Assembly (NCBI GenBank): GCA_945869935.1
Contig: CAMBSA010000111.1
Span: 1 to 6,484 of the forward strand
DNA: 6,484 nt
Direction of reading: 5' to 3'
Source: Bordetella parapertussis
GTDB taxonomy: Bacteria; Pseudomonadota; Gammaproteobacteria; Burkholderiales; SG8-39
Below, piece by piece: positions 1,306 to 6,462 of this stretch. The number at the start of each line of letters is the position of its first letter. Within the stretch, counting starts at the first letter, position 1. The translations under genes were made by a program, and so were the position numbers. The notes beneath the pieces were generated by a model. The model was not told where the DNA came from. It did not search any database and saw nothing but the letters and a program-made list of their open reading frames with translations.

Positions 1306-1489
1306 GGACCGTGATTTGCTGGCGACCGTGCAGAAACGTTCCTTGATGGAGGTGGTCATTGTCCGGTTCTTTTCAGTTACTCGGGATGCGTCACTGTGGA
1401 ATGCGAATGGAAGCTGTCGATCCGTCGGGCTTGAGCGTTATGTCTGAAGCCATTTCCTCGGTCTCGAATTTTCCTGGCTGGTGCGATTG

Positions 1490-2467
1490 ATGAAAATATG
1501 CGTGGTGGGTGCAGGGGCCATAGGCGGGTGGATCGGTGCGGGTATGGCTCGTGCGGGGCACGAGGTGAGCCTCGTCGCACGGGGGGGGCATCTCGATGCT
1601 ATACGGCGGCGTGGACTGGTCCTGGTGTCGGACGGTGAGACGTACACGGTTTCGGCAAGTGCGTCGGCGGATCCCGGCGACTTCGGCGTGCAGGAGGCGG
1701 TGTTTATCGCGCTGAAAGCCTATTCGATTCCGGAAATGCTGCCGTTGCTGGCGCCGCTGCTTGGCGCGGATACAGTCGTGGTTCCGGCAATCAACGGTAT
1801 CCCGTGGTGGTATTTTTACAAGGAGGGCGGGGCATTCGACAACTCGGTTCTCGACTGCCTCGATCCTCGCGGGACGATGCTTGAGGTGCTGGATCCCGGC
1901 CATATCTTGGGCTGCGTCGTTCACGGCGCTGCGCAGGTGATCGAGCCGGGAGTGGTGCGGCATACCGCGGGAGATCTCATCTATCTCGGTGAACCTGATC
2001 GTTCAGTTTCCGCACGCGCCCGGAAATTGTCAGACGCGATGATCTCCGCGGGATTCAATGCGCCGGTGGCCGAGGATATACGCCAGGAAATCTGGATGAA
2101 GCTGATTGGAAACCTTTCCTATAACCCGGTGGCTGCCCTGACGCTCGCGCATATGGATGAAATAAGCGCGAACGGGCGGGTCCTTGCATTGATCCGGATC
2201 ATGATGCGGGAGGCGATGGCGGTTGCCGAGGCTTACGGTATCGCGATCAGTCTTGGTGTCGAGGAGCGCATCGAAATGGCACGGCAAATCGGCCACGCAA
2301 AGATTTCGATGCATCAGGATGTGGAGAAGGGCCGGCCGCTCGAGATCGACGCGATTCTCGGCAGCGTACTTGAGCTGGCGCGGCGGTCCCGGATCGCGAC
2401 GCCGGTGATGGACATGGTGCATGCGCTGATCGAGGAGCGCGCCCGTCACCCGGTGACGGCGCCTTGA
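1490..2467 (+). CDS. Ketopantoate reductase family (ApbA/PanE-like) NADP-dependent oxidoreductase
   Basis: A 325-residue reductase counted from ATG 1490. Family members reduce 2-oxo acids with NADPH; the founding member reduces 2-dehydropantoate to pantoate in coenzyme A synthesis. The N-terminal Rossmann fold opens with the dinucleotide loop GAGAIG (residues 7-12), and VVPAINGIP places N102 as the substrate-side asparagine. The C-terminal helical domain has IWMKLIGNLSYN (K204, N208, N212), with K204 the expected catalytic lysine, and SMHQDVEKGRPLEID (273-287), with E285 matching the conserved late glutamate. An in-frame GTG at 1481 would add three residues. ATG 1490 is preferred because MKICVVGAGAIG is the standard family N-terminus. 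No good Shine-Dalgarno precedes either start. The gene lies 19 bp before a monooxygenase gene, so a catabolic oxo-acid role is more likely than pantothenate synthesis. That role is inference. Confidence 0.88.
   Translation: MKICVVGAGAIGGWIGAGMARAGHEVSLVARGGHLDAIRRRGLVLVSDGETYTVSASASADPGDFGVQEAVFIALKAYSIPEMLPLLAPLLGADTVVVPAINGIPWWYFYKEGGAFDNSVLDCLDPRGTMLEVLDPGHILGCVVHGAAQVIEPGVVRHTAGDLIYLGEPDRSVSARARKLSDAMISAGFNAPVAEDIRQEIWMKLIGNLSYNPVAALTLAHMDEISANGRVLALIRIMMREAMAVAEAYGIAISLGVEERIEMARQIGHAKISMHQDVEKGRPLEIDAILGSVLELARRSRIATPVMDMVHALIEERARHPVTAP
2443..2459 (+). other. Hairpin at the 3' end of the reductase gene
   Basis: CCGTCACC (2443-2450) and GGTGACGG (2452-2459) are perfect inverted repeats separated by one base, giving a 7-bp stem with a 3-nt loop. 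They end 5 nt before the TGA stop and 11 nt before the Shine-Dalgarno of the monooxygenase gene. No T-run follows. The position would suit an RNA element tuning downstream translation or mRNA processing, but it is inside coding sequence and may be chance. Confidence 0.3.
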
Positions 2468-2486: not shown

Positions 2487-4355
2487 ATGACGGTAGCCGA
2501 TGCGAGTGGGTATCGCTTACCGGTGTATGAATTCCGGCGTCCTGCGGAGCTCGGCAGCGGGGAAGTGAGCCGGCATCCGGTGATCATTATCGGAGGCGGA
2601 TTGTGCGGACTGACCGTCGCCTGTGATCTCGCGATCAAGGGCGTTCCCGTCGTTGTCCTTGACGAGGACAACACGGTCGGGGGGCGAGGTGCGTCATCTC
2701 GCGGGATTGTCTATGCCCAAAAGAGCCTCGAGATATTCGATCGGCTGGGTATTTACGAGCGAATACTGGCCAAAGGCGTGACCTGGTCCGTTGGCAAGAC
2801 GCTCGCCGGCGACGATGTGGTGTACTCGTTTGATGCGGGTGCGACGAACCACTCCCGTCAGCCGCCCTTCATCAATATCCAGCAGTTCTATGTCGAATGG
2901 TTTCTGGTCGACCGGATAGGAGAACTCGAGGGCGCGGACCTTCGATGGAACAACCGGGTGACGGGAATTCGTGATCTGGGTGATTGCATGCGCCTGGACG
3001 TGGAGACGCCGGTGGGAACCTACCAGATCGATGCTGACTGGGTGCTCGATTGCGAAGGCGTACATAGCGTGGTTCGCGAAGCGCTCGGGATCGGCGCGCA
3101 GACGTCACGGCGCCATGACCGGTGGTGCATCTCGGATGTGAGATTTCGTTTGCCCTTGCCCGCCGAGCGCTGGACCTGGGTCGAGGCGCCGTTCAACGAG
3201 AATCGCGCGGTCTGGCAGCACTTGATGGCTGACGATGTGTGGAGGATGGACTTCCAGATGGATCCGCAGTGCGATCTCGAGGAGGTCAGTCGCCCGGAGG
3301 TGGCCGCCGCACGTCTGCGCGCGCATCTTGGAGATGACGTGAACTTCGAGCTCGTCTGGGTGGGACCGTACTCGTACAGAAGTTTTGCGCTGGAGTGCTT
3401 CCGGCACGGACGGGTCTTCTTCCTCGGCGATACTGCGCATCAGATGAGCCCTTTCGGCGCACGTGGCGGAAACAGCGGAATTCAGGATGCGGACAATCTG
3501 GCCTGGAAACTCGCGCTGGTTCTGGGTGGGCGCGCCGGAGAGCGCCTGCTCGACTCCTACGACGCGGAGCGACGTCCGGCAGCGGTCGAAAACGTGCGCC
3601 TTACGCATCGGACCAATCGCTTTCTCTCACCGGACTCCGCGGAGGAAAAAGTACTTCGCGATGCGGTACTCGCCCTCGCGCGAAGGCACGAATTTGCCCG
3701 CCCTCTGGTCAATACGGGAAGACTGTCGGTCGCGTCGGCCTACGGGGATTCGCCCGTCATCGAGGGCGGCGGCAAAAGCGTGCAGAACCTGGCGATCGAG
3801 TTCGATGATGGACGTATCGGTCATCTTGCCGATCTGTTCCGTTCGTACGGCGGCATCGCAGGAATTATTTTCGGTGATGTTCCGGAAGTGCTGGAACTTG
3901 CCGCGGGCGATATGCCGGTACGCCTTTATGCCTGCGGTGGCCGCGGACGGCGAATGATCGTGGATCCCCGGGGGCTTCTCACAGAAGCCACGGGATCCGC
4001 CCCCGGGACCTGCGTGCTGCTTCGTCCCGACTTGCACATGGCGGCGACGATACCGTGGCCTGATCCCGAGTCGTTGAAGCACGGGCTGGATATCGCGCTC
4101 GGTGGCACTCCATCCGCGAAGCCGGCTGCGGTCAGTGAAGGAGATGTCGGACAACCGGAGGCAGGCATGCAGGTGGCACCGAATATTCCCGATCCGGACG
4201 GATTCTATGAGTCTCTTGCAGACGCTCATGCGGGGCTGTCTCCACAGCAGAGCGCCGCTTTGAACGCACGCCTTGTCTTCCTGCTGGCGAATCAGATCGG
4301 AGACGGATCCATGCTTCTCGAATGCATAGTCGCGGCGCGCGAAGGACATTCTTAG
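2487..4355 (+). CDS. FAD-dependent class A monooxygenase fused to a C-terminal DUF2783 domain
   Basis: A 622-residue flavoprotein of the p-hydroxybenzoate hydroxylase fold, expected to hydroxylate an aromatic or related substrate using FAD, NAD(P)H and O2. The FAD loop is VIIIGGGLCG (32-41), with D59 ending the second strand. The second nucleotide motif reads DCEGVHSVVR (188-197); relatives usually have CDG, so E190 replaces the aspartate. The FAD ribityl motif is FFLGDTAHQMSPFGARGGNSG (311-331) with D315, followed by QDADNLAWKL. The thioredoxin-like C-terminal domain runs about 405-540 (GRLSVASAYGDSP; VLLRPD). After a linker rich in Ala, Pro, Gly and Glu (541-560), residues 561-622 match DUF2783 (PNIPDPDGFYESL; ALNARLVFLLANQIGD). 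From memory, DUF2783 is usually a separate short gene beside this monooxygenase type. The substrate is unknown. The start is set by a strong Shine-Dalgarno. Confidence 0.9.
   Translation: MTVADASGYRLPVYEFRRPAELGSGEVSRHPVIIIGGGLCGLTVACDLAIKGVPVVVLDEDNTVGGRGASSRGIVYAQKSLEIFDRLGIYERILAKGVTWSVGKTLAGDDVVYSFDAGATNHSRQPPFINIQQFYVEWFLVDRIGELEGADLRWNNRVTGIRDLGDCMRLDVETPVGTYQIDADWVLDCEGVHSVVREALGIGAQTSRRHDRWCISDVRFRLPLPAERWTWVEAPFNENRAVWQHLMADDVWRMDFQMDPQCDLEEVSRPEVAAARLRAHLGDDVNFELVWVGPYSYRSFALECFRHGRVFFLGDTAHQMSPFGARGGNSGIQDADNLAWKLALVLGGRAGERLLDSYDAERRPAAVENVRLTHRTNRFLSPDSAEEKVLRDAVLALARRHEFARPLVNTGRLSVASAYGDSPVIEGGGKSVQNLAIEFDDGRIGHLADLFRSYGGIAGIIFGDVPEVLELAAGDMPVRLYACGGRGRRMIVDPRGLLTEATGSAPGTCVLLRPDLHMAATIPWPDPESLKHGLDIALGGTPSAKPAAVSEGDVGQPEAGMQVAPNIPDPDGFYESLADAHAGLSPQQSAALNARLVFLLANQIGDGSMLLECIVAAREGHS
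3962..3998 (+). other. Extended hairpin inside the monooxygenase gene
   Basis: Outer arms GGATCCC (3962-3968) and GGGATCC (3992-3998) enclose inner arms GGCTTCT (3973-3979) and AGAAGCC (3983-3989) with a CAC loop. The two 7-bp stems are separated by a small asymmetric internal loop. It falls in the thioredoxin-like domain (about codons 492-504), upstream of the internal start at 4167. A transcript could fold here; whether it matters is unknown. Confidence 0.4.
4157..4169 (+). promoter_or_regulatory. Internal Shine-Dalgarno and in-frame ATG before the DUF2783 domain
   Basis: GGAGG at 4157-4161 stands 5 nt before ATG 4167-4169, which is codon 561 of the monooxygenase, in frame. The ATG falls exactly at the start of the DUF2783 homology. 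Spacing and sequence are those of a normal translation start, so the site could yield a free 62-residue DUF2783 protein, or it could be a remnant of a formerly separate gene. Confidence 0.45.
4167..4355 (+). other. DUF2783 domain, possibly also made as a separate 62-residue protein
   Basis: This segment encodes residues 561-622 of the fused monooxygenase, beginning MQVAPNIPDPDGFYESL and including SPQQSAALNARLVFLLANQ. The length and pattern fit DUF2783, a family of short uncharacterised proteobacterial proteins that I recall lying next to flavin monooxygenases of this type. It looks mainly helical, with likely helices near 572-582, 586-603 and 607-617. No enzyme motif is visible. An accessory or stabilising role for the flavoprotein is inference from the fusion. 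The stop is shared with the full-length protein. Confidence 0.55.
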
Positions 4356-4357
4356 AA

Positions 4358-4371
4358 CGGAAAGCTTTCCG
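4358..4371. other. Perfect 14-bp palindrome after the monooxygenase stop
   Basis: CGGAAAGCTTTCCG is perfectly self-complementary and starts 3 nt after the TAG stop at 4353-4355. As RNA it would give only a 5-bp stem with an AGCU loop and no T-run, so a DNA-binding site for a dimeric regulator of the downstream TRAP genes is as plausible as a terminator. Confidence 0.35.
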
Positions 4372-4404
4372 CCAGGGGCCGAATTGGGTAATCTACCGGT
4401 CCTG

Positions 4405-4500: not shown

Positions 4501-4650
4501 ATGAAGCCGACATTCGCACCAGCGAAGAGCAGGCGTGCGGGCAGCGTTTTCAGCGCGCACCTGCCTGGCGGAGGGTCTGAAGTGGTGGCCGACGTTTGGT
4601 CCCCCTCGGTTCCTGCCGAACGGAATCACCTCGAAAGGCTCGCAGGATGA
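4501..4650 (+). CDS. Possible small protein (49 residues) overlapping the TRAP small-subunit gene
   Basis: An uninterrupted ORF runs from ATG 4501 to TGA 4648-4650. It is preceded by GAGGGGAG at ideal spacing and its end overlaps the next gene's start in an ATGA (4647-4650). The product begins MKPTFAPAKSRRAG, is basic at its N-terminus, has a GGGS stretch near residue 23 and ends in ERLAG. It has no membrane segment, signal peptide or known motif that I recognise. By hand count, 31 of 48 codons after the start end in G or C, as expected for coding DNA here but also for background. It may be a translated leader that couples ribosomes onto the transporter gene, a small protein, or a chance ORF. 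It does not resemble the missing DctP subunit. Confidence 0.35.
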   Translation: MKPTFAPAKSRRAGSVFSAHLPGGGSEVVADVWSPSVPAERNHLERLAG

Positions 4651-5153
4651 AAAAGGGTGTCTTCGCTCGCTCGGCAGGCTATCTCGATGTCGTGCTGTCA
4701 TGGATCGCGGGTTTAGTACTTTTTTCAATGATGCTTCTGACTTCGGTCGATGTCTTTACGCGATACGTTCTGAATGCTCCGATCCGCGGTGCGTTTGAGG
4801 TTTCGGAAATATTGATGGCCGTTCTGATCTTCGCCGGCCTTCCCCTGGTGTCTCGAAAGAACGAGCATGTGACGATCGAGTTCGCTGACCGGTTGATCCC
4901 GGACGTGCTCAGGGGATTCATGGACGCGATGGTGCAGCTTGTATGCGCAGGCATGATGTTTGGCTCTGCCTGGCTCATGCTCCTGAAGGCGCAACGGGTA
5001 GGCCAGTACGGTGATAACACCGCGACTCTCAAGATTGAGCTTGCACCGTTTGTCTACCTGATGTGCGCGCTGATCCTGATCACCGGACTGATTCACTTAG
5101 TAAAGGCGTTCCGACCGGGCAGTTCGGATTTGCAGTCCGGCGGCCTGGTCTGA
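4647..5153 (+). CDS. TRAP transporter small permease subunit (DctQ family)
   Basis: A 168-residue inner-membrane protein, typical length for the 4-helix DctQ subunit that pairs with DctM and a periplasmic DctP to import organic acids using the sodium gradient. Hydrophobic segments lie at about residues 13-34, 51-70, 92-113 and 131-154. The family signature is visible as VDVFTRYVLN (34-43) followed by AFEVSEILM (49-57), with D35, R39, E51 and E54, and RKNEHVTIEF at 70-79. An upstream TTG at 4596 in the same frame would add 17 hydrophilic residues. ATG 4647 is chosen because MKKGVFARSAGYLDVV gives a normal short cytoplasmic N-terminus and GAAAGG lies 8 nt upstream. The start overlaps the stop of the small ORF, and the stop lies 13 nt before the DctM gene. 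The substrate is not readable from this subunit. Confidence 0.92.
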   Translation: MKKGVFARSAGYLDVVLSWIAGLVLFSMMLLTSVDVFTRYVLNAPIRGAFEVSEILMAVLIFAGLPLVSRKNEHVTIEFADRLIPDVLRGFMDAMVQLVCAGMMFGSAWLMLLKAQRVGQYGDNTATLKIELAPFVYLMCALILITGLIHLVKAFRPGSSDLQSGGLV

Positions 5154-5157
5154 GGAG
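5152..5157 (+). promoter_or_regulatory. Ribosome binding site of the large permease gene, overlapping the previous stop
   Basis: GAGGAG overlaps the TGA stop (5151-5153) of the small permease gene and lies 9 nt before ATG 5167. This arrangement supports translational coupling of the two permease subunits. Confidence 0.75.
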
Positions 5158-5166
5158 TGTGACGAC

Positions 5167-6462
5167 ATGCTAGAAGCACTGCTCGGATTTGCCGGCATTT
5201 TTGCGCTCTCCCTTTTGCGTATCCCAATCGGTTTTTCGATGGGGATCGTCGGCTTCGTCGGCTTGGGAATCCTGCGGAACTGGAACTCTTCCTATTCTTC
5301 GGTAACCCAGACGATCTACGAGAGCGGTTTCAACTACGTGCTCTCCGTGATTCCCTTATTCATCCTCATGGGCAATCTGATCAGTCGAGCAGGCATGTCG
5401 AAGGAACTCTTTGATGCGGCGCACTCCTGGATAGGTCACTGGCGCGGCGGACTTGCGCACGCCACGGTGGTCGCCTCGGCCGGCTTCGGTTCGGTGTGCG
5501 GATCCAGCGTGGCGACTGCCGCGACGATGGCCAAGGTCTGCTATGCGCCAATGAAAAAACTGGGCTATGCCGACTCGCTCGCTGCCGGCTCCATCGCCGC
5601 GGGCGGTACTCTCGGCATCCTGATTCCTCCGTCGACATTGATGGTTATTTACGGAATCATGACCGAGACCAATATCGGGGCGCTGTTTGCGGCCGGGATG
5701 TTACCGGGCCTGCTTGCGGTCGCGCTGTTGTCGATTGCAATCCACTACACGACATGGCGCGATCCGAAGGCGGGCCCCCCCGGGCCGCGTTCGGACTGGC
5801 CGACGCGCTGGAAGGCCTTGCGTGGCGTCTGGGGAGTCACGGTACTGTTTGTCGTGTCTGTAGGCGGCATTTATTTTGGCGTGTTCACGGCGACCGAAGG
5901 TGCCGGTGTCGGCGCGTTCGGTGCGTTCATATTTGCTTTGTTTCGCGGGCAACTCACATGGCGCGTGATGCTGGATATTCTGGTCGAGAGCGCGCGTACG
6001 ACCTCGATGCTTTTTGTCATTTTGATCGGCGCATTTATATTCGCGAATTTCGTGAACTTCACGTCCTTGCCCAACGACCTGAAGTCTTTCATCGAGCGAT
6101 TTGAAGTTCATCCCATGCTCGTGATGACTGTGATATGCATCATCTACATCGTGCTTGGCACGGTGATGGAAGAACTCTCCATGATTCTCCTTACGGTGCC
6201 GCTGTTCTTTCCCATCGTGATGCATCTCGGGTTCGACCCTGTCTGGTTCGGCATCATCATCGTCGTGGTCGTCGAGATAGGATTGATCAGTCCTCCGGTG
6301 GGCATGAACATGTTCGTCGTACAGACGCTTCTGCCCAACGTGTCCCTGCGAACCGTATTCAAGGGGGTCTGGCCGTTTGTGATTGCGGACTGCGTACGTC
6401 TCGCGATACTTGTTGCTTTTCCCGCAATCAGTCTCTGGTTGCCGCAGCTCCTATTCAAATAG
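5167..6462 (+). CDS. TRAP transporter large permease subunit (DctM family)
   Basis: A 431-residue polytopic inner-membrane protein, full length for DctM, which forms the transport channel with DctQ. Family hallmarks are in order: IPLFILMGNLIS (62-73), the first hairpin region GGTLGILIPPSTLMVIYG (146-163), TATEGAGVGA (241-250), GTVMEELSMILLTVPLFFPI (331-350) and the second PP loop GLISPPVGMN (372-381). The two PPS/PPV loops mark the inverted-repeat halves that carry the ion and substrate sites. About 11-12 hydrophobic stretches span the protein, with a polar loop at about 198-217. It is co-transcribed with the small permease gene by spacing. No DctP gene is visible within the 22 bases after the stop, nor elsewhere in the window, so substrate class is open; sugar acid, aromatic acid or other carboxylates are all possible. 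Confidence 0.95.
   Translation: MLEALLGFAGIFALSLLRIPIGFSMGIVGFVGLGILRNWNSSYSSVTQTIYESGFNYVLSVIPLFILMGNLISRAGMSKELFDAAHSWIGHWRGGLAHATVVASAGFGSVCGSSVATAATMAKVCYAPMKKLGYADSLAAGSIAAGGTLGILIPPSTLMVIYGIMTETNIGALFAAGMLPGLLAVALLSIAIHYTTWRDPKAGPPGPRSDWPTRWKALRGVWGVTVLFVVSVGGIYFGVFTATEGAGVGAFGAFIFALFRGQLTWRVMLDILVESARTTSMLFVILIGAFIFANFVNFTSLPNDLKSFIERFEVHPMLVMTVICIIYIVLGTVMEELSMILLTVPLFFPIVMHLGFDPVWFGIIIVVVVEIGLISPPVGMNMFVVQTLLPNVSLRTVFKGVWPFVIADCVRLAILVAFPAISLWLPQLLFK

What the first reader, a model, noticed from the sequence alone, without database searches (positions are those of the whole stretch)
4140..4355. Flavin monooxygenase fused to DUF2783 with the partner gene's start signals preserved inside
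The last 62 residues of the 622-residue monooxygenase match DUF2783, which I recall as a separate short gene beside monooxygenases of this type. Inside the fused gene a GGAGG (4157-4161) sits 5 nt before an in-frame ATG (4167) exactly at the DUF2783 boundary. Either the fusion is recent, by loss of the upstream stop, or the gene makes both a fusion and a free DUF2783 protein. It also argues that DUF2783 works physically with the flavoprotein.
Basis: partly seen in the sequence, partly recalled or inferred. Interest (0 to 1): 0.75.

Follow-up and report, generated by a model that had tools for sequence, protein, structure and literature searches.

The report
Hydroxylase fused to its helper protein
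This bacterial gene joins a flavin-dependent enzyme, predicted to oxidise aromatic rings, to a small protein that nearly all surveyed relatives encode as a separate next gene, and it still carries that small protein's own start signal, so it would likely make both a joined and a free form.

Summary
Residues 561-619 of the 622-aa monooxygenase match DUF2783 well above Pfam's cut-off. GGAGG (4157-4161) lies 5 nt before an in-frame ATG (4167) at the domain boundary.

DUF2783 is normally the next gene: of 201 FMO-DUF2783 pairs 194 were split and 7 fused; the tree needs four changes, most simply four fusions. The window's fusion occurs in a genus mate (97%) and in proteins 85% and 77% identical, so it is not very recent.

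New here: the 66-aa ORF between mhaA and hmgA in a genome matched by Burkholderia xenovorans LB400 primers, a proposed MhaB coupling protein, is a remote DUF2783 homologue, seen with bridging profiles only. I read the window gene as a single-chain hydroxylase that works like MhaAB; its substrate is unknown.

Two products are plausible but unproven. Met561 is invariant where 1 of 22 linker columns is; 3.4% of 1,299 internal ATGs have as long a ribosome site. The five fused rows outside this clade have no ATG at the boundary. Protein or ribosome data are needed.

The parts
2487..4355 (+). Fused gene: FAD-dependent monooxygenase (FAD_binding_3 type) plus DUF2783, 622 aa
   Evidence: NCBIfam NF006002, 524.5 bits, cut-off 416
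2577..3599 (+). FAD_binding_3 domain, residues 31-371
   Evidence: 203 bits; AlphaFold model mostly confident here
4101..4166 (+). Linker, residues 539-560, hypervariable (1 of 22 columns invariant among four fused proteins); residues 545-560 modelled with low confidence
4157..4161 (+). GGAGG, Shine-Dalgarno-like, 5 nt before the internal ATG; identical in the genus mate G001
4167..4169 (+). Internal in-frame ATG (Met561) at the first position of the DUF2783 profile; invariant in the window, G001, P0002 and P0003
4167..4355 (+). DUF2783 domain; would be a free 62-aa protein if the internal start is used
   Evidence: 86.8 bits for the tail alone

Best explanation
The gene encodes a flavin monooxygenase joined end to end with DUF2783, a small protein that is likely its coupling subunit, and the retained internal start likely still makes some free DUF2783 as well. 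Shown: the two domains lie in one open frame; most surveyed relatives encode them as adjacent genes; fusion changed four times on the tree; start codon and ribosome site are intact. Inferred: DUF2783 works like MhaB, the small coupling protein of 3-hydroxyphenylacetate 6-hydroxylase, by sitting on the flavoprotein so that NAD(P)H oxidation is spent on ring hydroxylation rather than on making peroxide; the fusion fixes the 1:1 ratio that split relatives would approach by coupled translation (63 of 194 pairs overlap by 4 nt). Inferred and weaker: the internal start is held by selection and used. The confidence below is for the fused, coupled hydroxylase; the second product on its own I put at about 0.45.
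For: DUF2783 match. 194 split and 7 fused of 201 pairs; 63 of 194 split pairs overlap by 4 nt. Four changes between split and fused forced by supported branches of a 190-row tree, with both domains confirmed by Pfam in L168, L169, L171 and L174. Coupling role: the 66-aa ORF between mhaA and hmgA in G1281, a genome matched by both published LB400 hmgA1 primers, scores 50.9 bits with a profile of 12 divergent DUF2783-like members and 31.6 bits with a profile of all 205 places, while the best of 2,000 shuffles scores 12.6 and 11.7. PMC3053370 (passages) calls P. putida U MhaB a coupling protein and proposes this LB400 gene (35% identical to it) as MhaB. Full-length hmgA lies within 10 kb of DUF2783 in 35 of 80 genomes, on the same strand in 36 of 36 pairs, and within 350 nt downstream in 16. 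Internal start: 3.4% chance rate; Met561 invariant, linker 1 of 22; no ATG at the boundary in the five fused rows outside this clade. One DUF2783 match each in G000 and G001.
Against: LB400 MhaB is not a Pfam DUF2783 match (0 families); my profile of 120 close DUF2783 proteins gives it 11.5 bits, below the best shuffle at 12.9; direct profile comparison is weak (hhalign probability 9.9%). Only bridging profiles link them, and of the 12 bridging members 7 pass Pfam's cut-off, 3 fall just short and 2 were not tested. PMC3053370 says its assignment needs confirmation and gives 60 aa, not 66. Two reviews list the P. putida enzyme among two-component enzymes of another type (passages), which does not fit the FAD_binding_3 type seen in LB400 MhaA. 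Window and LB400 monooxygenases are 35% identical, and no hmgA was found in the window. The AlphaFold model gives the tail 47-74 per ten-residue block and no contact measure. Met168 has as long a ribosome site; local RNA folding is ordinary. G000 is 72% and G001 90% complete, so a free copy could be missed. DNA of P0002 and P0003 was not available.
Confidence: 0.55

Rival explanations
1. Fusion only: the internal ribosome site and ATG are relics of the once separate gene, and one 622-aa protein is made.
For: The five fused rows outside this clade have no ATG at the DUF2783 boundary, so a free product is not generally needed. The site length is reached by 3.4% of internal ATGs; local RNA folding is ordinary.
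Against: Met561 is invariant in four proteins (three distinct clusters) in which only 1 of 22 linker columns is, although methionine has no synonymous codon; the fusion is old enough for 77% identity.
Confidence: 0.5
2. DUF2783 is not a coupling subunit but another partner, for example a folding or assembly helper of the flavoprotein.
For: No structure of a PF10932 relative was found by profile, and the one paper of the library naming DUF2783 has it in a gene table. The link to MhaB is remote.
Against: Bridging profile match to LB400 MhaB, similar length and same gene order; same-strand linkage to hmgA in 36 of 36 near pairs.
Confidence: 0.3
3. Assembly or sequencing error: a frameshift or miscalled stop joins two normally separate genes.
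For: Two other database 'fusions', P0241 and P0242, look like this: the monooxygenase match ends at profile position 354 or 395 of 554 while DUF2783 is intact.
Against: The window's monooxygenase matches to profile position 549 of 554 in the same frame; G001, P0002 and P0003 share the fusion; the P0001 cluster has 12 member sequences.
Confidence: 0.02

Closest known systems
MhaAB, 3-hydroxyphenylacetate 6-hydroxylase of Pseudomonas putida U and its proposed LB400 counterpart (PMC3053370, passages seen; original 2005 paper recalled only)
   Same: Flavoprotein of 560-570 aa followed by a small protein of about 60-66 aa; both the LB400 and the window large subunits exceed the NCBIfam NF006002 cut-off; small subunits remotely homologous.
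   Different: Window is one chain; large subunits 35% identical; no hmgA found beside it; substrate unknown.
Split FMO-DUF2783 gene pairs of Variovorax, Polaromonas, Bosea and others
   Same: Same two domains, same order, same strand.
   Different: Two genes, 63 of 194 overlapping by 4 nt, against one fused frame.
Naturally fused styrene/indole monooxygenase StyA2B/IndA2B (PMC6165268, passages seen)
   Same: A flavin monooxygenase fused to its partner component.
   Different: The partner there is a flavin reductase and the enzyme is group E; the DUF2783 tail is about 60 aa and matched no reductase family.
Cas8/Cas11 genes with an internal start for the small subunit (PMC11899642, title and start of abstract seen; details recalled)
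   Same: Large-subunit gene with an in-frame start near its 3' end that would give the small subunit.
   Different: Unrelated proteins; the short product is reported there, untested here.

Membership tests
DUF2783 (PF10932) | Score above Pfam's curated cut-off over the whole profile | tested here: met
   81.1 bits in the full protein and 86.8 for the tail, cut-off 25, profile 1-59 of 59
FAD_binding_3 flavin monooxygenase | PF01494 match and the matching fold | tested here: met
   203 bits; the 50 best PDB fold matches listed are led by the flavin monooxygenase PieE
FAD_binding_3 flavin monooxygenase | Binds FAD and hydroxylates an aromatic ring | not testable with these tools
   No biochemistry available
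MhaAB 3-hydroxyphenylacetate 6-hydroxylase | Large subunit in the same subfamily | tested here: met
   Both exceed the NF006002 cut-off of 416: window 524.5, LB400 745.5
MhaAB 3-hydroxyphenylacetate 6-hydroxylase | Small subunit homologous to MhaB | tested here: inconclusive
   Bridging profiles 50.9 and 31.6 bits, but the close-relative profile 11.5, below the best shuffle; no Pfam match; hhalign probability 9.9%
MhaAB 3-hydroxyphenylacetate 6-hydroxylase | Gene lies beside hmgA | tested here: not met
   None of the four other predicted window genes scanned is hmgA; G000 has hmgA on contigs 225 and 14, the window is contig 111; the contig is only 6,484 bases. So filed as 'works like', not as a member
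MhaAB 3-hydroxyphenylacetate 6-hydroxylase | Substrate 3-hydroxyphenylacetate; small subunit essential for coupling | not testable with these tools
   Needs enzyme assays
Dual-product gene with internal start | In-frame start with ribosome site at the domain boundary, conserved | tested here: met
   the ribosome site was read in two genomes only, the Met in four proteins
Dual-product gene with internal start | Short product detected | not testable with these tools
   Needs ribosome profiling or proteomics

The most novel reading that the evidence does not exclude
One gene makes two forms of a coupled hydroxylase: a single-chain enzyme-plus-coupling-subunit and, from an internal start kept by selection, free coupling subunit. 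DUF2783, so far of unknown function, is the MhaB coupling family, which has been fused to its flavoprotein about four separate times.
Probability: 0.4. Interest if true: 0.65.

Novelty: new variant of a known kind. Interest (0 to 1): 0.5.

Why it matters
It gives DUF2783, a Pfam family of unknown function, a testable role: the coupling subunit of flavin hydroxylases that in many genomes sit beside homogentisate dioxygenase. Repeated natural fusions show which end of the flavoprotein tolerates the subunit and offer single-chain enzymes for studying how a protein of about 60 residues steers oxygen chemistry. If two products are made, it is also a bacterial metabolic example of an internal start supplying a small subunit.

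Tried and rejected
P0241 and P0242, listed as further fusions, were rejected: the monooxygenase match stops at profile position 354 or 395 of 554 while DUF2783 is intact, as expected of a frameshift. Long open frames around DUF2783 in G144, G501 (two), G535, G743 and G938 were suspected fusions; the monooxygenase lies in another frame, so they were counted as split. Single-piece plasmid hits in Variovorax and Ciceribacter (H5, H8, H25) were checked and are split in the same frame by a stop (L110-L112). An out-of-frame ATG at 4144 was considered as another start; G001 has ACG there. Gene neighbourhoods of 14 split relatives were scanned to find the substrate (112 of 114 ORFs picked); my ORF picking in GC-rich DNA was poor and the 25 of 46 families shown gave no shared catabolic gene. 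A PDB search with a DUF2783 profile found nothing up to E = 1. A search of G000 and G001 with LB400 MhaB found nothing, without a positive control.

Limits: rests on 205 distinct DUF2783 places for which DNA was held; 4 had no monooxygenase match within 700 nt upstream and were dropped; for 13 of the 201 kept the match picked scores 20 bits or less (the fused L168 among them, confirmed by Pfam). One search kept the best 80 of 559 loci; of 836 plasmid records four were fetched. The sets overlap in ancestry and are not a random sample. The tree is FastTree with long-branch warnings, and its four changes could include losses of fusion. After re-checking I lowered the main confidence from 0.6 to 0.55, because the close-relative profile fails on LB400 MhaB and the LB400 paper only proposes that gene as mhaB.

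Full report
1. Observation. The ORF at 2487-4355 encodes 622 residues. Pfam finds FAD_binding_3 (31-371) and DUF2783 (561-619, 81.1 bits, cut-off 25). GGAGG at 4157-4161 precedes the in-frame ATG at 4167 by 5 nt. In 20 contig stretches of the same genome (272,751 bases) 3.4% of 1,299 internal in-frame ATGs have a Shine-Dalgarno match this long at a usable spacing, and Met168 of this gene is one of the chance cases. Among 194 separate DUF2783 genes 44% have a match that long. So the site looks like a working DUF2783 start, but alone it is only moderately unlikely by chance.

2. Fused versus split. I pooled DUF2783 places from searches of 61 relatives (7 with a match), 369 genomes of the class (16), 399 of the order (63) and 398 of the phylum (59) (the groups overlap and include the own genome), with DNA fetched, from the best 80 of 559 loci related to the monooxygenase and from four plasmid stretches. 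Of 205 distinct places, 201 have a monooxygenase match upstream on the same strand within 700 nt: 194 split, 7 fused. Split pairs are close: 63 of 194 overlap by 4 nt. 35 of 194 are in the same frame, so a lost stop could fuse them; the other 159 would need a frame change. A region search of 5.8 billion proteins for this tail in proteins of similar length gave five clusters, of which two look like frameshift artefacts; that search reaches only relatives sharing short exact words, and the other fusions below were not among its results.

3. Age and number of fusions. The window's fusion is shared by the genus mate G001 (97% identity), P0002 (85%) and P0003 (77%); P0004 (69%) is a 556-aa protein without DUF2783. 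On a 190-row tree with 9 fused rows the label needs four changes, all forced by supported branches (FastTree). The simplest reading is four gains: the window clade; G560 and G682; G838 and G793; G568; a mix of gains and losses is not excluded. Pfam confirms both domains in L168, L169, L171 and L174 (DUF2783 in L174 only just over the cut-off, 27.0 bits). Two of these other fusions lie near hmgA (G568, 1,330 nt; G838, 3,696 nt).

4. What DUF2783 is. In 80 of 121 listed genomes I sought homogentisate dioxygenase (TIGR01015): a full match lies within 10 kb of DUF2783 in 35 of 80, on the same strand in 36 of 36 pairs, and within 350 nt downstream in 16. This is the order described for the proposed mhaA-mhaB and hmgA1 of Burkholderia xenovorans LB400 (PMC3053370, passages), where MhaB of P. 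putida U is called a coupling protein and the LB400 gene, 35% identical to it, is proposed as mhaB. The published hmgA1 forward primer matched 1 of 144 genomes of one genus, a 9.7-Mb genome; the reverse primer matches the same locus. There a 570-aa monooxygenase, a 66-aa ORF and hmgA follow each other (the paper gives 560 and 60 aa). The 66-aa ORF has no Pfam match, only weak direct similarity to the window's DUF2783 group, and 11.5 bits with my profile of 120 close DUF2783 proteins, below the best shuffle at 12.9. A profile of 12 divergent members gives it 50.9 bits and a profile of all 205 places 31.6 bits, against 12.6 and 11.7 for the best of 2,000 shuffles. Of those 12, 7 pass Pfam's DUF2783 cut-off, 3 fall just short and 2 were not tested. 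I conclude that MhaB and DUF2783 are one remote superfamily. That the P. putida U small subunit is essential for hydroxylation is recalled from the 2005 paper, which I did not see. Two reviews list the P. putida enzyme among two-component enzymes of another type (passages), which LB400 MhaA, an FAD_binding_3 protein, does not resemble; I could not resolve this.

5. How it likely works. Split relatives would make the two subunits in near-equal amounts by coupled translation; the fusion fixes that ratio. The inferred role of DUF2783 is to make flavin oxidation productive. The AlphaFold model shows a mostly confident monooxygenase, a disordered linker (545-565 under 50) and a four-helix tail of low to moderate confidence; docking could not be judged.

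6. One product or two. For two: Met561 is invariant in four fused proteins (three distinct clusters) in which only 1 of 22 linker columns is invariant; the five fused rows outside this clade have no ATG at the boundary (L174 has one 25 codons upstream without a ribosome site), so methionine is not needed there for folding; one DUF2783 match each was found in G000 and G001, which are 72% and 90% complete. Against: the ribosome-site evidence is modest, RNA folding is ordinary (28% of 500 internal ATGs fold more weakly), and the other fusions do without an ATG. Window and G001 differ by 2 synonymous codons in the linker and 3 codons in the tail, too few for a selection test. I put two products at about 0.45.

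7. In print. The term DUF2783 occurs in one paper of the library, in a gene table (PMC6710368, passage). Searches for MhaB, MhaA, coupling proteins and 3-hydroxyphenylacetate 6-hydroxylase listed no paper that links the two by title or abstract start; I did not read all listed papers.

Noticed in passing
window 4353-4391: After the TAG stop the same frame reads NGKLSARGRIG then stop, matching the C-terminal extension of P0002 and P0003 (NGKLSATGGIG, NGKLSAKGGIG); the window and G001 seem to have gained an earlier stop.
   Followed up: partly
window 4359-4370: A perfect 12-nt palindrome GGAAAGCTTTCC lies just after the stop codon and is identical in G001.
   Followed up: no
window 1481-2467, 77-1144, 4596-6462: Neighbours are a ketopantoate-reductase-like enzyme, a mandelate-racemase/enolase-type enzyme on the other strand and TRAP transporter DctQ and DctM subunits; no TRAP binding protein was among the genes scanned.
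   Followed up: partly
PMC6710368, operon bll2330-bll2329-bsl2328: A Bradyrhizobium operon of a VOC protein, FAD-dependent oxidoreductase and DUF2783 is listed with values of -4.2, -3.7 and -3.5 in a table of nnrR-mutant profiling (passage).
   Followed up: no
L056 and L090: Each locus holds a second monooxygenase with a divergent small DUF2783-like partner 3-4 kb upstream.
   Followed up: no
G465, G516, G649, G144: In four genomes a stretch 286-401 nt after DUF2783 has only a weak hmgA match (82-92 bits), perhaps a gentisate-type dioxygenase.
   Followed up: no
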